DNA from: a virus
Direction: 5' to 3' (one strand)
IMG/VR virus record: IMGVR_UViG_3300033997_000569
Span: 1 to 46,519 of that record
DNA: 46,519 nucleotides
This document shows positions 9,435 through 45,474 of the stretch, in pieces. The position numbers were made by a program, and so were the translations under genes. Each line of letters opens with the position of its first letter. Position 1 is the first letter of the stretch. Below the pieces are notes generated by a model. It ran no database searches, was not told the origin of the DNA, and was given only the letters and a program-made list of their open reading frames with translations.

Positions 9435-9712
9435 GCTGTTCTCCAGAGGTAAGGGGGAGGGCTTCGGTAAGCGCTGACTCGCAGCGCTGGCCGAAACCCG
9501 CTTTTCAGCGGTTCGGGTAATACGGCCGGGATTCCAACCGGCGTGACCGTTGCTTGTCTTGGCCGTCTACGCCTCACCCTGTTGACCGTGGACCGCGCTA
9601 TGGCGGGCTGGATACGGCAGGGACACCGCGCAGAGCTACGGCCATGCCCGTAGGTGCGATTGAGCCGGGGAACGCCCCACAGGCGAGGCGAGCTACATCG
9701 GCGATTGGTTGT
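9435..9712 (-). other. Untranslated leader of the leftward operon
   Basis: About 280 bases between the boxA and the first gene hold no convincing gene. They contain a strong bulged hairpin at 9491-9516 (CCGAA with TTCGG, CCGCT with AGCGG) with no U-run, so it is not an intrinsic terminator. Long leaders behind phage early promoters often carry antitermination or attenuation signals; that reading here is inference. Confidence 0.5.
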
Positions 9713-9721
9713 TAAAGAGCG
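9713..9721 (-). promoter_or_regulatory. boxA antitermination element
   Basis: On the minus strand the sequence CGCTCTTTA is an exact match to the boxA consensus bound by NusB-NusE. It lies at the very 5' end of the predicted leftward transcript. A clear boxB hairpin was not found, so antitermination may rely on host Nus factors rather than an N-like protein (inference). Confidence 0.6.
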
Positions 9722-9728
9722 TGCAGGC

Positions 9729-9757
9729 ATGATTGCACAAGAAAAACTAGCATGCAA
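9729..9757 (-). promoter_or_regulatory. Leftward early promoter (PL equivalent)
   Basis: On the minus strand, TTGCAT (9752-9757 on +) and AATCAT (9729-9734) are separated by exactly 17 bases. The -35 element falls between and within the two operators at 9736-9769, so repressor binding would block it. The cro promoter has the same -35 and spacing. Confidence 0.65.
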
Positions 9758-9769
9758 GAAAAACTAGCA
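9736..9769. promoter_or_regulatory. Left operator pair for the CI/Cro proteins
   Basis: Two abutting 17-bp sites: CACAAGAAAAACTAGCA (9736-9752) and TGCAAGAAAAACTAGCA (9753-9769). Each is an imperfect palindrome with six-base arms around a five-base centre. They match the three sites at 11269-11324, which flank the repressor gene start. This is the standard two-operator plan of lambdoid immunity. Confidence 0.85.
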
Positions 9770-9823
9770 ATTGATTTTGTAACTGAGAAAGCCTGTCCGA
9801 GATTCGGCTAGGGCTAGGCGAAG

Positions 9824-41511: not shown

Positions 41512-41715
41512 CTAGGAGGCAATAGCGAGAAGCCTAGCAAATACCGCCGTCGTGATCGGCGTGACTGGTGTGGCCGCTGGCGTACTGACCTGCGGGGTCA
41601 GGTTGCGATGGTTGGAGCGTGTAGCCTCGAAGAGGCGCGCCGAAGTTTCAGCCGATTTCTCGGCAGCGCGTTGGAGAGCGTCACGTACCTCAGTTGGCGT
41701 TTGGTATGTTCGCAT
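41512..41715 (-). CDS. Small protein at the end of the right-arm transcript
   Basis: A 67-residue protein, MRTYQTPTEVRDALQRAAEK and onward, helical, then a Ser/Thr/Pro-rich linker and a hydrophobic C-terminal end (TTAVFARLLAIAS). AAGG lies eight bases before the ATG at 41715. An ATG at 41721 is also possible. It overlaps the 3' end of the protease-like gene by 26 bases. No family is known. Confidence 0.6.
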   Translation of the reverse strand: MRTYQTPTEVRDALQRAAEKSAETSARLFEATRSNHRNLTPQVSTPAATPVTPITTAVFARLLAIAS

Positions 41716-42646
41716 TTCCATCACCTTGTGTCGACGGGATATAGAAGATCTGGGGCGTTTCGGCGTTGATCTGGGCTCGACCAGCAGCATACAACGCCTG
41801 AGCCAATTGTAGAAGCATGCCTGTTGGCTTTTCCACCTTGGTGAAGATGGTTCGTGCCTCTTTTCGGTCAATTACGAACCCGTGTGATGGGTAGTTGGCT
41901 ACAAGCTTCTCCAGGCCGCCGGCCCTTAGATTCAAACTTTTTTCGTTCAGCCGTTGCCCATAGGCATAAGCTATATCAGTGGCCCGTTGCATCTCAGCTA
42001 AGCGCATCGGATCAATTTGACCGAAAATCGGCGAGAACAATCCGGTTGTCAGCTTCGATGCCATGTCGGAAGCGGCCTTGGTTGACAAGCCTTCGTAGGT
42101 CAGTTGGTCAACATACGTTCGGAACGCATTCATCGCTTGATTTTGTAGGTAATTGACCGCCTGCAATATATCGAGACCTGAATTACGACCTACGAGTTCA
42201 TCGGATTTTTTGATCTGAACATCCAATGGACCCAGCTCGCTCTGATCGCAGAGATAAAGCTGTGTGGCGCCAATGCAGATGAGAGTTCCCGCGCTCTTGC
42301 ATACCCAGGGGACCAGTACATGGAAGTCCTGGAATTCGTGCTGGAGCGCACGCGCAATTCGGAATCCCGCGTGCGGATCGCCACCTGGTGTGGTCAGGAC
42401 AAACAGTGCATGACTAGATTTTTGCTTTTGCTCTTCCAGTTGGAGGCAGATTTGGTCATAGCCCGCACGATTGATTTGGCCTGAATACACGATTACATCG
42501 CGGGCCGGCTGCGGCTGCGGCTGCGGGGGCGCGGAGTCCTCCGGACCGGCGATGTGTAGATGGGGAAGGCCTTGTCCTTGAGGCCCTTCCTCTTGGTTCT
42601 CGCGATCTTGTTCCTCCGCAGCGGAAGGGGCAGCTTCTCCGGTCAT
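41690..42646 (-). CDS. Serine dehydrogenase-proteinase-like (SppA/ClpP-fold) protein
   Basis: A 318-residue protein of the SDH_protease group (ClpP/crotonase-like superfamily). A Pro/Gln-rich N-terminal tail (about 1-50) precedes the fold: VIVYSGQINRAGYDQI, ALFVLTTPGGDPHAGFRIA, then VPWVCKSAGTLICIGA with the candidate nucleophile Ser118, and SELGPLDVQIKK. S49-like enzymes normally add a Lys; its exact identity here is not clear. GGAGGA precedes the ATG. The gene is visibly less GC-rich than the phage core, which suggests recent transfer. It may cut or modify a host or phage protein in the lysogen; the role is unknown. Confidence 0.82.
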   Translation of the reverse strand: MTGEAAPSAAEEQDRENQEEGPQGQGLPHLHIAGPEDSAPPQPQPQPARDVIVYSGQINRAGYDQICLQLEEQKQKSSHALFVLTTPGGDPHAGFRIARALQHEFQDFHVLVPWVCKSAGTLICIGATQLYLCDQSELGPLDVQIKKSDELVGRNSGLDILQAVNYLQNQAMNAFRTYVDQLTYEGLSTKAASDMASKLTTGLFSPIFGQIDPMRLAEMQRATDIAYAYGQRLNEKSLNLRAGGLEKLVANYPSHGFVIDRKEARTIFTKVEKPTGMLLQLAQALYAAGRAQINAETPQIFYIPSTQGDGNANIPNAN

Positions 42647-43080: not shown

Positions 43081-43111
43081 AAAAACAAAGCCCCACCGGA
43101 GTGGGGCTTTG
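43081..43111 (-). terminator. Intrinsic terminator after the repeat RNA
   Basis: CAAAGCCCCAC-TCCG-GTGGGGCTTTG, an eleven-pair stem, followed on the minus strand by TTTTT. It closes the leftward transcript that carries the anti-CRISPR operon and the repeats. Confidence 0.9.
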
Positions 43112-43230
43112 ACTGCCTGTTCGACAGAGAAGAAGAGCCGCCAAGCGCCTACGGTGACTTTTCTGAGCTGCCTATGCGGCAGCGAACGGTTCTAACCTGT
43201 ATTTACTAAACTGCCTGTTCGGCAGTGGCG
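43105..43230 (-). CRISPR. Three type I-F-like repeats, irregularly spaced (solitary-repeat cluster)
   Basis: Read on the minus strand, three copies of the type I-F repeat stem CTGCC-N5-GGCAG lie in one orientation. R1 (43203-43230): stem with loop GAACA, 3' part altered (TTTAGTAA). R2 (43160-43187): begins GTTCGCTGCCG, has loop GCATA, and ends CTCAGAAA, an almost canonical 28-nt repeat with an 8-nt handle. R3 (43105-43132): CTGTC-GAACA-GGCAG, handle lost and merged into the terminator. Gaps are 15 and 27 bases, unlike the 32-base spacers of real I-F arrays. No cas operon or leader follows. The Cas6f (Csy4) hairpin is kept in all three; only R2 keeps the handle bound by Cas8f-Cas5f. Confidence 0.82.
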
Positions 43231-43265: not shown

Positions 43266-44537
43266 TCATTTGGCCGTTGCTGAGCACCACCGCACGCCGT
43301 TTGGCGTAACGGTCCGGTGCCACCACGCGTCGTCCGTGAGTGATCCCTGGGTCACAAGAGAAAAAACAGATTCCGACCACGCGTGTTTGTGGGAACGCGC
43401 ATTGGCGCGCACCTGGGGAGTTTCTAGCCAAGCATATCCCGTTGCGTTCAGTGTGTACCCGTTCTTAGATTGATACCAACCATCGCGCTTTGTCCAGGAT
43501 CCATCCCGCCCGTAGGCGTCCAGAGCGGCATCTAGAGCATCAGCGCCGCTGGGGCGACGTTCGATTTCGGCAGAGGCGTCCAGCAGGAAGGACATGCCTT
43601 CGATCTCATCGCCCGGATGATGGATGGTCGTTGTAGGGTCAAAGACGCTGCCACCCGCCAAGCGAGTGATTTGCCGCAAAGCAGGGGCTAGCCGTTGCGG
43701 GTTTACCCCCCGAACAAAGAGCGAGATGAGCGCGTTCGCGCTGATCTCGTCGCGGGCATATCCAGGCGTTGGCGTCACCACGCCATAAACCTGCCCAGCA
43801 CGCACGCGCCCCTCCAGCGCAAGAGGGGCGTTGGGGGTGCCCCCACGCGGGATGGTGTGCAGCGGGCCATTAACCCATTGGCAATGATGCATTGCAAATG
43901 CAAATTGCAAATCATCATCGAGTTCGCGCTCCAATGCATGGATCAGTCCACCAATCGCGGTCATGGCTGGCCAGCCAACGCTCATCATGCCGGCGGAAAT
44001 GTTCATGCGTTCGACGCGGGCGCGCAGCTCAACAACTGGGGCCGCTCCGCGTAGCTCACTTTTCCCTGCGGTTTCGACAATCCCCCGGCGCATGAGCATG
44101 ACCTTTCCGCCCTGCATGAGCAGCCCTTCGCCGTGGTTTGAGATTGCTGCGGCCGTGGGCTGGACGGTGTGCAAGTAGTGCGGCAAGTTCCGCTCCTTCA
44201 GGCGTTGGTACATCTCATGCAGCAGACCGACACTTGCAATCGGGCTGGTGGCCACATACTCATCCTTTCGCCAATCGCCGACCGGGATGAGAACTTGTTT
44301 GAGTCGCGGATCAGCGATGTTCGGAATTGACGGCTCAAATGCTGTGGCTCCTGCCTGATCGCGCTGTTGCCGCTCTGCGGCCATGTCGGCCGCGTTCAGG
44401 GGCAAGGCCCACAGTTCGCGGCGCAAATTCGTCGTAGCGGATGTGATGGCCGAGTTGCTGGCGCTTATGACGCGAGCGCGCAGGGGCGACTGCTTCAAGC
44501 GCGGATTGAACATCTTGGGCGCGTGCGTACCGATCAT
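43266..44537 (-). CDS. Miniature Cas8f-Cas5f (Csy1-Csy2)-like fusion protein
   Basis: A 423-residue protein that I read as a reduced Cas8f-Cas5f fusion. The C-terminal part (about 169-423) matches Csy2 by pattern: GWPAMTAIGGLIHALERE (188-205; Csy2 has PSPGAFTGFVHALQRR), RLAGGS (292-297), GYTLNATGYAWLE with VRANAR and SESVFSL (360-394), and DAWWHR near the end. Residues about 80-136 resemble part of Csy1: QVLIPV, YVATSPIASVGLLHEMY, then QPTAAAISN where Csy1 has TKPQNIS. The PAM-contacting Asn250 and wedge Lys247 of Pseudomonas Csy1 fall on Ala131 and Thr128. The Csy1 helical bundle is missing. Starts inside the HTH gene (ATGA). Probably a dominant-negative decoy (inference). Confidence 0.72.
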   Translation of the reverse strand: MIGTHAPKMFNPRLKQSPLRARVISASNSAITSATTNLRRELWALPLNAADMAAERQQRDQAGATAFEPSIPNIADPRLKQVLIPVGDWRKDEYVATSPIASVGLLHEMYQRLKERNLPHYLHTVQPTAAAISNHGEGLLMQGGKVMLMRRGIVETAGKSELRGAAPVVELRARVERMNISAGMMSVGWPAMTAIGGLIHALERELDDDLQFAFAMHHCQWVNGPLHTIPRGGTPNAPLALEGRVRAGQVYGVVTPTPGYARDEISANALISLFVRGVNPQRLAPALRQITRLAGGSVFDPTTTIHHPGDEIEGMSFLLDASAEIERRPSGADALDAALDAYGRDGSWTKRDGWYQSKNGYTLNATGYAWLETPQVRANARSHKHAWSESVFSLVTQGSLTDDAWWHRTVTPNGVRWCSATAK

Positions 44538-44755
44538 TTTTTATAGTCCTCTGGTCTGTATTCCGAGATACCAGCCGCGATTGCGGCGCATGCAAGGGCC
44601 GTTCTTCGATCAATCATCACCGGCTTCCCGGTTGCAAACGCAGATCCGCGCTCCATCGCTTGCAGCGTTGGCAGACTGACGCCCAGGGCATCAGCTGCGG
44701 CGCGTTGAGAGTAGCCCATGTGCTGGCGCCAAGCCTGCATGTCTTCGGGGCTCAT
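44534..44755 (-). CDS. Small HTH regulator, Aca-like position
   Basis: A 73-residue HTH protein, MSPEDMQAWRQHMGYSQRAA and onward. The helix-turn-helix is MGYSQRAAADALGVSLPTLQ, and a helical tail follows. It is coupled by ATGA overlaps both to the AcrIF11-like gene upstream and to the Cas8f-Cas5f-like gene downstream. Anti-CRISPR-associated (Aca) proteins are HTH repressors of this size encoded right behind acr genes and shut off the acr promoter (family knowledge). A 19-bp palindrome overlaps the -10 of this operon and is the natural operator. Confidence 0.8.
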   Translation of the reverse strand: MSPEDMQAWRQHMGYSQRAAADALGVSLPTLQAMERGSAFATGKPVMIDRRTALACAAIAAGISEYRPEDYKK

Positions 44756-45207
44756 GCGCGCTCCAGATCGCCTTCTCGGTCCTGCATGTCGATCATGTAT
44801 GCGGTGCCTTGCTCATCTCGCACAGCGACGCCACGGAAGCCCAGCAGGGCGGCGGCGCGGGCGGTGAAGTGCTGCACGTCCCACGACGCGTCGGCGGCGT
44901 CTTCGGCATCTATGCCGTCCACGTCGTACACGTTCTTCGACTCTTCGATCAGCGCTTCCGCGTCATCTTCGTCCACAGCCAGGCGGCGGGCCAGCTCAAC
45001 GACAAGGGGGGCCAGCTTTTCAGCGTCAGCATGATAAAAAAGCTGGCCAGCATCGATAACGTCGTTTTCGTCGATTTCCAGGCGGTACACCACCGCTTCG
45101 CCGGACGCCATGGTGTACACGCGGGACGAGAAAAACAGGAACGAACCAAACCGGCCGGCGGTGCCGATGCTGCTGATTTCGGTGGGGCTGGTGTGGAACA
45201 GTTCCAT
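44752..45207 (-). CDS. acrIF11: AcrIF11-like anti-CRISPR ADP-ribosyltransferase
   Basis: A 151-residue protein that matches AcrIF11 by eye along nearly its whole length. It starts MELFHTSPTEISSIGTAGRF, with the NAD-binding FHTS motif typical of ADP-ribosyltransferases. It continues with AVVYRLEIDENDVIDAGQLF, an acidic helix, DGIDAEDAADASWDVQ, and FRGVAVRDEQGTAYM near the end. AcrIF11 inactivates type I-F Cascade by ADP-ribosylating the PAM-reading Asn250 of Cas8f (established knowledge). First gene of a three-gene operon behind a consensus promoter. GGAGAA precedes the ATG by five bases. Confidence 0.87.
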   Translation of the reverse strand: MELFHTSPTEISSIGTAGRFGSFLFFSSRVYTMASGEAVVYRLEIDENDVIDAGQLFYHADAEKLAPLVVELARRLAVDEDDAEALIEESKNVYDVDGIDAEDAADASWDVQHFTARAAALLGFRGVAVRDEQGTAYMIDMQDREGDLERA

Positions 45208-45224: not shown

Positions 45225-45260
45225 TGACTAAATTATATAGTCAATCGGAAGAAGGTGCAA
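45225..45260 (-). promoter_or_regulatory. Anti-CRISPR promoter overlapped by a palindromic operator
   Basis: On the minus strand, TTGCAC (45255-45260), a 17-base spacer, then the perfect TATAAT (45232-45237). The -10 lies inside a 19-bp palindrome, TGACTAAATTATATAGTCA (45225-45243). The promoter starts inside the end of the upstream HTH gene, so the acr unit can be transcribed on its own right after DNA entry and then be repressed by an HTH protein. Confidence 0.82.
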
Positions 45261-45474
45261 CTCTCTTTTTTGCAACAGCCGACTGCTTGTCGAGGTCGTT
45301 GCAGATCGACATGAGATCAAGCGCCTTGCATGCAAGCTCAAGCATGCGCGGCAGATCGTCAGCTCTCGCAAGATATCCCGCGTATGTTCGCCGACTGACG
45401 CCCAGGGCCACGGCAGCGGTGTCGTATGTGTAGCCGTGGCGCGCTTGCCACTCGCGGAGATCATTTGCTGTCAT
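45241..45474 (-). CDS. Small HTH protein, second copy type
   Basis: A 77-residue HTH protein, MTANDLREWQARHGYTYDTA and onward. The HTH is GYTYDTAAVALGVSRRTYAG; the tail is helical and ends KKRVAPSSD. It has the same size and layout as the 44534 protein (both start with a Leu/Met-x-x-W helix and a GY-S/T-helix), so the pair may be distant relatives. The acr promoter lies within its last codons. Either HTH protein could bind the palindrome. Confidence 0.78.
   Translation of the reverse strand: MTANDLREWQARHGYTYDTAAVALGVSRRTYAGYLARADDLPRMLELACKALDLMSICNDLDKQSAVAKKRVAPSSD

What the first reader, a model, noticed from the sequence alone, without database searches (positions are those of the whole stretch)
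43105..43230. Cluster of three type I-F repeats in the 3' part of the acr transcript (RNA anti-CRISPR candidate)
All three repeats keep the Cas6f (Csy4) stem CTGCC-N5-GGCAG (R3 with one G-U pair) in sense orientation; only the middle one keeps a complete repeat with handle CTCAGAAA. Gaps of 15 and 27 bases cannot be functional I-F spacers (32). An intrinsic terminator is fused to the last repeat. This is the layout of phage solitary-repeat RNA anti-CRISPRs (Racr), with the twist that a Cas5f/Cas8f-like decoy able to bind the handle is encoded directly upstream. R1 and R2 also share a block before the stem, GTTAGA followed by TTCG.
Basis: partly seen in the sequence, partly recalled or inferred. 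Interest (0 to 1): 0.93.

Follow-up and report, generated by a model that had tools for sequence, protein, structure and literature searches.

The report
Phage decoy guide RNAs jamming CRISPR
A bacterial virus carries, right after its anti-CRISPR genes, a short RNA built from imitation CRISPR repeats spaced too closely to make working guides, and dozens of other phages carry the same layout, which suggests an overlooked way of blocking type I-F CRISPR immunity with dead-length guide RNAs.

Summary
In detail: three type I-F repeat-like hairpins lie at 43105-43230 on the minus strand. Only R2 is a full repeat (Rfam CRISPR-DR4, 42.1 bits), and an intrinsic terminator is fused to R3. No shuffle reproduces the cluster (0/3,466 and 0/20,000). 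Upstream on the same strand are AcrIF11, an HTH gene and a 423-aa Cas8f/Cas5f-like mini-fusion.

The locus is not a solitary-repeat Racr. Pasteurella phages carrying a 35%-identical mini-fusion have 4-5 hairpins and a fused terminator in the same place, with compensatory stem changes. A pattern scan of IMG/VR found about 39 phage loci with closely spaced I-F hairpin pairs. Their first repeat keeps a near-invariant handle; the last usually lacks one and often abuts a terminator. Pseudo-spacers are mostly 14-21 nt instead of 32. AcrIF24 or AcrIF8 lies directly upstream in 16/39 loci, against 0/73 loci with canonical spacing.

Best explanation: host Cas6f cuts these RNAs into complete but short crRNAs that assemble stunted Cascade unable to license Cas2/3; published type I-F work shows 14-26-nt spacers do exactly this. 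Expression, cleavage and inhibition are untested. The mini Cas8/5 probably adds a dominant-negative subunit. New variant of a known kind.

The parts
43203..43230 (-). R1, degenerate I-F repeat (stem CTGCC-GAACA-GGCAG, partial handle TTTAGTAA)
   Evidence: (CRISPR-DR4 24.3 bits)
43188..43202 (-). 15-nt pseudo-spacer between R1 and R2
   Evidence: inside the 14-31-nt range of 43 of 44 related phage units
43160..43187 (-). R2, complete I-F repeat with handle CTCAGAAA
   Evidence: Rfam CRISPR-DR4 42.1 bits, above gathering score
43133..43159 (-). 27-nt pseudo-spacer between R2 and R3; no match in phage records, no self-match
43105..43132 (-). R3, terminal hairpin without handle (stem CTGTC-GAACA-GGCAG, one U-G pair)
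43086..43111 (-). intrinsic terminator fused to R3 (11-bp stem, T run)
43266..44537 (-). 423-aa mini Cas8f/Cas5f-like fusion; stop codon 35 nt before R1
   Evidence: Cas_Csy2 1.1e-7, Cas_Csy1 4e-5, PADLOC Cas85f 3.1e-12; Tn6677 Cas8/5 2.9e-14
44534..44755 (-). 73-aa HTH protein, Aca-like position; start overlaps AcrIF11 end
   Evidence: HTH_3 3.5e-7; Aca role inferred
44752..45207 (-). AcrIF11 family ADP-ribosyltransferase anti-CRISPR
   Evidence: NF052490 3.4e-49, 167 bits, cut-off 50
45241..45474 (-). 77-aa second HTH protein, likely part of the same operon (inferred)
   Evidence: HTH_31 4.7e-5

Best explanation
This is an RNA anti-CRISPR of a multi-repeat kind. The 3' end of the acrIF11-HTH-miniCas8/5 transcript (or a shorter RNA ending at the same terminator) carries three Cas6f hairpins. 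In a host with a type I-F system, Cas6f would cut after each stem and release short crRNAs: R2 handle (CUCAGAAA) + 27-nt pseudo-spacer + R3 hairpin, and R1 partial handle + 15-nt pseudo-spacer + R2 hairpin. These carry what Cascade needs to assemble (5' handle, 3' hairpin) but a spacer shorter than 32 nt. They would therefore capture Cas6f, Cas7f and, through the handle, Cas5f/Cas8f in stunted complexes that cannot license Cas2/3. The phage itself encodes no Cas6f or Cas7f that could be found, so it depends on the host's. The mini Cas8/5, which appears to lack the helical bundle and part of the N-terminus, probably acts alongside as a dominant-negative Cas8f/Cas5f substitute. Shown here: the sequence features, their recurrence, stem covariation, handle conservation, short-spacing statistics and linkage to acr genes. 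Taken from published biochemistry: short-spacer I-F Cascade assembles but does not trigger Cas2/3. Inferred: transcription, processing and inhibition in this phage.
For: Non-random cluster. Same architecture downstream of 35%-identical mini Cas8/5 in Pasteurella phages with a different stem (CCGCT/AGCGG), ~26-nt pseudo-spacers and a fused terminator; stems 98.8% paired with 3 of 5 pairs changed on both sides. IMG/VR scan: 49 stretches with short-gap I-F stem pairs; handle near-invariant in 44 units although the pattern did not ask for it, pseudo-spacers 14-21 nt in 35 of 44, only 1 below 14; last handle degraded, terminator directly after in 13 of 37. AcrIF24 or AcrIF8 12-463 bp upstream, same strand, in 16 of 39 loci versus 0 of 73 loci with canonical spacing, p=4e-9; deduplicated 12/33 versus 0/67, p=3e-7. 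LESphi3 and IME307 carry it behind acrIF24; in LESphi3 a C-to-T change in the first stem leaves a G-U pair. Published: I-F1 Cascade with 14-, 20-, 26-nt spacers purifies with all subunits but does not trigger Cas2/3; 8- and 2-nt spacers gave no complex (PMC7296934). A non-targeting crRNA also lowers I-F interference (PMC10651486). No Csy3 or Csy4 in the window.
Against: No RNA data and no functional test. R3 lacks a handle and R1 has a partial one, so in the window only the R2-R3 unit is a clean short crRNA. R3 is not formed in the predicted minimum-energy fold. No promoter-like site was found near. Pasteurella handles are degenerate, so their products may not hold Cas5f/Cas8f. The host and its I-F repeat are unknown. 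Relatives of the mini Cas8/5 on plasmids and in L008 have no repeats, so protein and RNA are separable. The scan pattern excluded gaps of 45 or more by design.
Confidence: 0.68

Rival explanations
1. Handle-free Racr or Cas6f sponge: the hairpins only titrate Cas6f (and seed Cas7f filaments on upstream RNA) as RacrIF1 does; handles and spacing do not matter.
For: RacrIF1 binds Cas6f and Cas7f and lacks Cas5f/Cas8f (PMC10651486). R3 and the Pasteurella handles are poor. Several stems per transcript suit titration.
Against: The first-repeat handle is near-invariant in 44 units and pseudo-spacers avoid lengths below 14 nt; a pure sponge needs neither.
Confidence: 0.2
2. Guide-type repressor: the short crRNAs direct non-cutting Cascade to a promoter (for example host cas genes), as CreR-like RNAs do.
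For: Cascade with 20- and 26-nt spacers still binds DNA without cleavage (PMC7296934).
Against: Pseudo-spacers share no sequence between phages beyond an A/T start, do not match their own phage DNA above chance (3 versus 1.4 expected), and the window's has no phage match. Host cas promoters could not be checked.
Confidence: 0.1
3. 3'-UTR control element: host Cas6f cuts or caps the acr mRNA and so tunes Acr expression.
For: The hairpins sit at operon ends and Cas6f is known to stay bound to its product (general knowledge).
Against: Does not explain handle conservation or pseudo-spacer lengths; the acrIF24-array gap of LESphi3 and IME307 holds a possible own promoter TTGACA-N17-TCTGAT.
Confidence: 0.08
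4. Decayed mini-CRISPR array or remnant of a captured I-F system or CAST, without present function.
For: Repeats are degenerate; the protein resembles Tn6677 Cas8/5.
Against: The layout recurs in unrelated phages with covarying stems, near-invariant handles and acr linkage; no Csy3 or Csy4 in the window; the 423-aa frame is intact and has full-length relatives.
Confidence: 0.05

Closest known systems
RacrIF1 and other solitary-repeat RNA anti-CRISPRs (PMC10651486)
   Same: Phage-borne mimic of a host I-F repeat, Cas6f stem kept, often next to acr genes.
   Different: Two or more repeats at short spacing; first handle kept, so the product is a complete short crRNA expected to recruit Cas5f/Cas8f as well. 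RacrIF1 is solitary and handle-free in its product. SRUFinder discards such clusters.
Virus-borne mini-CRISPR arrays (reviewed in PMC8616872, PMC11656645)
   Same: Few repeats, no cas genes for processing, last repeat often truncated.
   Different: Described mini-arrays carry spacers that mostly match related viruses; here pseudo-spacers are mostly 14-21 nt, unrelated to each other, and tied to acr genes (0 of 73 canonical-spacing loci are).
Cas-derived anti-CRISPRs AcrIB3 (Cas5 mimic) and AcrIB4 (Cas8b C-terminal mimic) (described in PMC13131331)
   Same: Orphan Cas5/Cas8 homologue in a mobile element next to acr genes.
   Different: Type I-F Cas8/5 fusion, and paired with decoy repeats in two phage lineages.
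Cas8/5 fusion of the I-F3 CRISPR transposon Tn6677 (PDB 6pig, 6lnb)
   Same: Closest solved relative of the 423-aa protein, same fused order.
   Different: About 220 aa shorter; ~100 residues between query 125 and 149 and ~120 N-terminal residues absent; no Csy3 or Csy4 in the phage.

Membership tests
Racr (solitary repeat unit) | matches a CRISPR repeat in a mobile element | tested here: met
   R2, CRISPR-DR4 42.1 bits, in a virus record
Racr (solitary repeat unit) | solitary: no other repeat-like sequence within 100 bp | tested here: not met
   R1 and R3 lie 15 and 27 nt from R2; R1 is 19/28 identical to it; SRUFinder rule in PMC10651486
Racr (solitary repeat unit) | bound and processed by Cas6f, inhibits CRISPR | not testable with these tools
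   stem retained and covarying in relatives; no assay
CRISPR array (type I-F) | repeats separated by ~32-nt spacers | tested here: not met
   15 and 27 nt
Short-spacing phage I-F arrays (class defined here) | repeat with good handle followed at short spacing by a handle-less hairpin and terminator, downstream of acr genes, same strand | tested here: met
   R2-R3-terminator behind acrIF11 and mini Cas8/5; R3 stem CTGTC lies outside the scan pattern, so the window was not itself a hit
Viral mini-CRISPR array | spacer matches another virus | tested here: inconclusive
   32 nt after R2 has no match in 50,697 phage records
AcrIF11 | NCBIfam NF052490 over cut-off, full length | tested here: met
   residues 1-139 of 151 match profile 1-142
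Cas-derived Acr (AcrIB3-like) | sequence homology to a Cascade subunit | tested here: met
   Csy2, Csy1 and Cas85f profiles; PDB profile search
Cas-derived Acr (AcrIB3-like) | inhibits CRISPR by replacing a subunit | not testable with these tools
   apparent loss of the helical bundle fits but does not show it
I-F3 CRISPR transposon / complete I-F system | Cas7f and Cas6f present | tested here: not met
   no Csy3 or Csy4 in the window record

The most novel reading that the evidence does not exclude
RNA and protein work as one: the phage makes its own Cas8/5-like cap and its own short crRNAs, which with the host's Cas7f and Cas6f form a phage-specified dead Cascade. More widely, phages have repeatedly evolved crRNAs whose spacer length falls between the minimum for Cascade assembly (14 nt) and the length needed to license Cas2/3 (32 nt).
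Probability: 0.3. Interest if true: 0.93.

Novelty: new variant of a known kind. Interest (0 to 1): 0.82.

Why it matters
If true, it shows that phages exploit the R-loop length checkpoint of type I-F CRISPR with dead-length crRNAs, a strategy that existing Racr surveys remove by their own solitary-repeat filter. It links the RNA route to a Cas-derived protein, a pairing bearing on the stated puzzle of why Racrs but so few Cas proteins were recruited as inhibitors (PMC11656645). It is testable at once, because phage LESphi3 and the structurally solved AcrIF24 family carry the same RNA directly downstream. The genes next to such arrays are also candidates for new anti-CRISPRs.

Tried and rejected
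Chance hairpins: rejected by shuffles. Host CRISPR array or remnant I-F system in the window: rejected (spacing; no Csy3 or Csy4). Interviral targeting by the 32 nt after R2: no phage match. Self-targeting pseudo-spacers: no excess. Two scans of bacterial genomes for the protein gave no confirmed relative, and relatives of a virus record are not drawn, so the host repeat could not be compared. AlphaFold model of the mini Cas8/5: mean pLDDT 37.5, not used. Set aside from the short-gap hits: L027, L029, L046, L049, L051 (chance matches or coding repeats), L026 and L030 (weak), L040 and L045 (they also hold canonical spacing), L031 (csy2-csy3-csy4 directly upstream). The 6-nt (Cas7f) quantisation of pseudo-spacer length is suggestive only: 16 of 44 at exact lengths versus 7 expected under a uniform null; lengths 18-19 also abound. 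Katz et al. 2024 is not held; used only through a review.

Full report
What was claimed.

Observation. It is real. On the minus strand R1 (43203-43230), R2 (43160-43187) and R3 (43105-43132) each have a 5-bp stem and a 5-nt loop. R2 is a full CRISPR-DR4 match (42.1 bits, gathering score 35), R1 is sub-threshold (24.3) and R3 is not reported. An 11-bp intrinsic terminator overlaps the end of R3. Dinucleotide shuffles never reproduce the cluster (0 of 3,466 whole-window, 0 of 20,000 regional). The 185-nt RNA folds better than its shuffles (z -3.8), but R3 is partly mispaired in the predicted fold.

Context. The window is an IMG/VR virus record with weak kinship to Bordetella and Achromobacter phages. 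Upstream of R1, on the same strand, are a 423-aa Cas8f/Cas5f-like protein, a 73-aa HTH protein and AcrIF11 (NF052490, 3.4e-49). There is no Csy3 or Csy4. The 423-aa protein has full-length relatives in Pasteurella phages (35% identity), Burkholderia and Moraxella plasmids, one IMG/VR contig (59%), and more distantly about 250 Acinetobacter plasmids. Its closest solved relative is the Cas8/5 fusion of Tn6677 (2.9e-14). Against the 640-aa chain, query 81-125 aligns with 199-240 and query 149-389 with 366-607. The phage protein therefore lacks about 100 residues at the place where, from general knowledge, the helical bundle that recruits Cas2/3 in Cas8f lies, and about 120 at the N-terminus. The structure model was too poor to use.

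Conservation. Directly after the relative in Pasteurella phages Pm86, Pmp12 and IMG/VR contigs there are 4-5 hairpins with stem CCGCT-N5-AGCGG, mostly 39 nt apart stem to stem (canonical 45), the last fused to a terminator. Across 17 repeats the stems are 98.8% paired and three of five pairs show changes on both sides, so base pairing is selected. The protein also occurs without repeats on plasmids and in L008, and L066 keeps the repeats without the protein. The two parts are separable.

A wider class. I scanned IMG/VR for two CTGCC-NNNNA-GGCAG stems 20-44 nt apart, which excludes normal arrays (45). There were 49 stretches; a few are chance, coding or true-array cases. In 44 non-redundant units the handle is near-invariant (T2, A4 and G5 in 44 of 44) although the pattern did not ask for it. 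Pseudo-spacers are 14-21 nt in 35 and below 14 nt in only one; they are U-rich and share no sequence beyond an A/T start. The last repeat usually has lost its handle and in 13 of 37 a terminator follows at once. Genes directly upstream include AcrIF24 (11 records; identity confirmed against PDB for two, 1.6e-130 and 1.3e-70), AcrIF8 (5 records) and Aca2. As a control, 73 stretches with canonical spacing and the same amount of DNA held carry none: 16/39 versus 0/73, p=4e-9; after removing near-duplicates 12/33 versus 0/67, p=3e-7. Phages LESphi3 and IME307 have the RNA behind acrIF24. In LESphi3 the first stem carries a C-to-T change that leaves a G-U pair, while the second stem and terminator are unchanged. 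Short spacing therefore marks an anti-CRISPR element. The window's R2-R3-terminator is the same layout, although its R3 stem (CTGTC) lies outside the scan pattern.

Mechanism. Type I-F Cascade can be purified with all subunits on 14-, 20- and 26-nt spacers, follows L = 6N - 4 for N Cas7f subunits, yields no stable complex at 8 or 2 nt, and even the 26-nt form gives no interference or Cas2/3 cleavage (PMC7296934). The phage pseudo-spacers fill this assembly-competent, interference-dead range, and so do the window's 15 and 27 nt. The decoy short-crRNA model follows: host Cas6f processes, host Cascade subunits are consumed, nothing is cut. A non-targeting crRNA is already known to lower I-F interference (PMC10651486). 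The mini Cas8/5 would fit as a dominant-negative subunit, by analogy with AcrIB3, which replaces Cas5 (PMC13131331). This last part is inference.

What is shown and what is not. Shown: sequence, conservation, covariation, class statistics, acr linkage. Not shown: that the RNA is made, cut, or inhibits anything; the host; what the mini Cas8/5 does. Rivals are a handle-free sponge (RacrIF1-like), a guide-type repressor, a 3'-UTR control element, and a decayed array; the first is the strongest.

Novelty. RNA anti-CRISPRs and Cas-derived Acrs are known. A multi-repeat, short-spacer, handle-bearing form was not found in the papers searched, and the Racr census excludes it by construction. Most papers of subscription journals were not available. 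I rate it a new variant of a known kind.

Noticed in passing
window 9630-9702 (+): Rfam Burkholderiales-2 RNA motif above gathering score (84.1 bits) in the phage; the surrounding DNA at 9525-9783 is ~87% identical to Bordetella avium phages.
   Followed up: no
L015:3971-5206 and about 250 Acinetobacter plasmid records: A ~25%-identical relative of the mini Cas8/5 sits directly downstream of parA-parB on conjugative Acinetobacter plasmids, annotated hypothetical; no I-F-like repeats nearby.
   Followed up: partly
L005:1050-1412, L006:3642-4004, L008:4642-5004: A conserved 120-aa gene of unknown family directly precedes the mini Cas8/5 in Burkholderia plasmids and in viral contig L008: an anti-CRISPR candidate.
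   Followed up: partly
L066:6499-8046: Pasteurella prophage that keeps the same short-spaced repeats but has an S24/HTH repressor and a BRCT-domain protein upstream, with no mini Cas8/5 in the DNA held.
   Followed up: partly
L031 / G018:C1:46217-49136: csy2-like, a further frame and an intact csy4 followed by two repeats with 32-nt stem gap; probably a remnant I-F locus at a prophage edge.
   Followed up: partly
L069 and L070, acrIF24-array intergenic region: TTGACA-N17-TCTGAT between acrIF24 and the first hairpin in IME307, with a very similar stretch in LESphi3: a possible own promoter of the decoy RNA.
   Followed up: partly
window protein 43266-44537, residue N134: N134 (SNHGE) aligns with the N of TTNMG in Tn6677 Cas8/5, by my reading the PAM-contact asparagine corresponding to Cas8f N250 that AcrIF11 modifies; threonine stands there in the Pasteurella relatives.
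   Followed up: no
window 41690-42646 (-): 318-aa ClpP-like SDH-type serine protease gene downstream of the acr operon.
   Followed up: no
L059:5877-6107, L028:4431-4631, L035:295-936, L019:442-1254: Genes of unknown family sit at or within about 20 bp upstream of short-spaced arrays on the same strand, the place held by AcrIF24 or AcrIF8 elsewhere: candidate new anti-CRISPRs (no Pfam match seen for L019, L035 and L059).
   Followed up: partly
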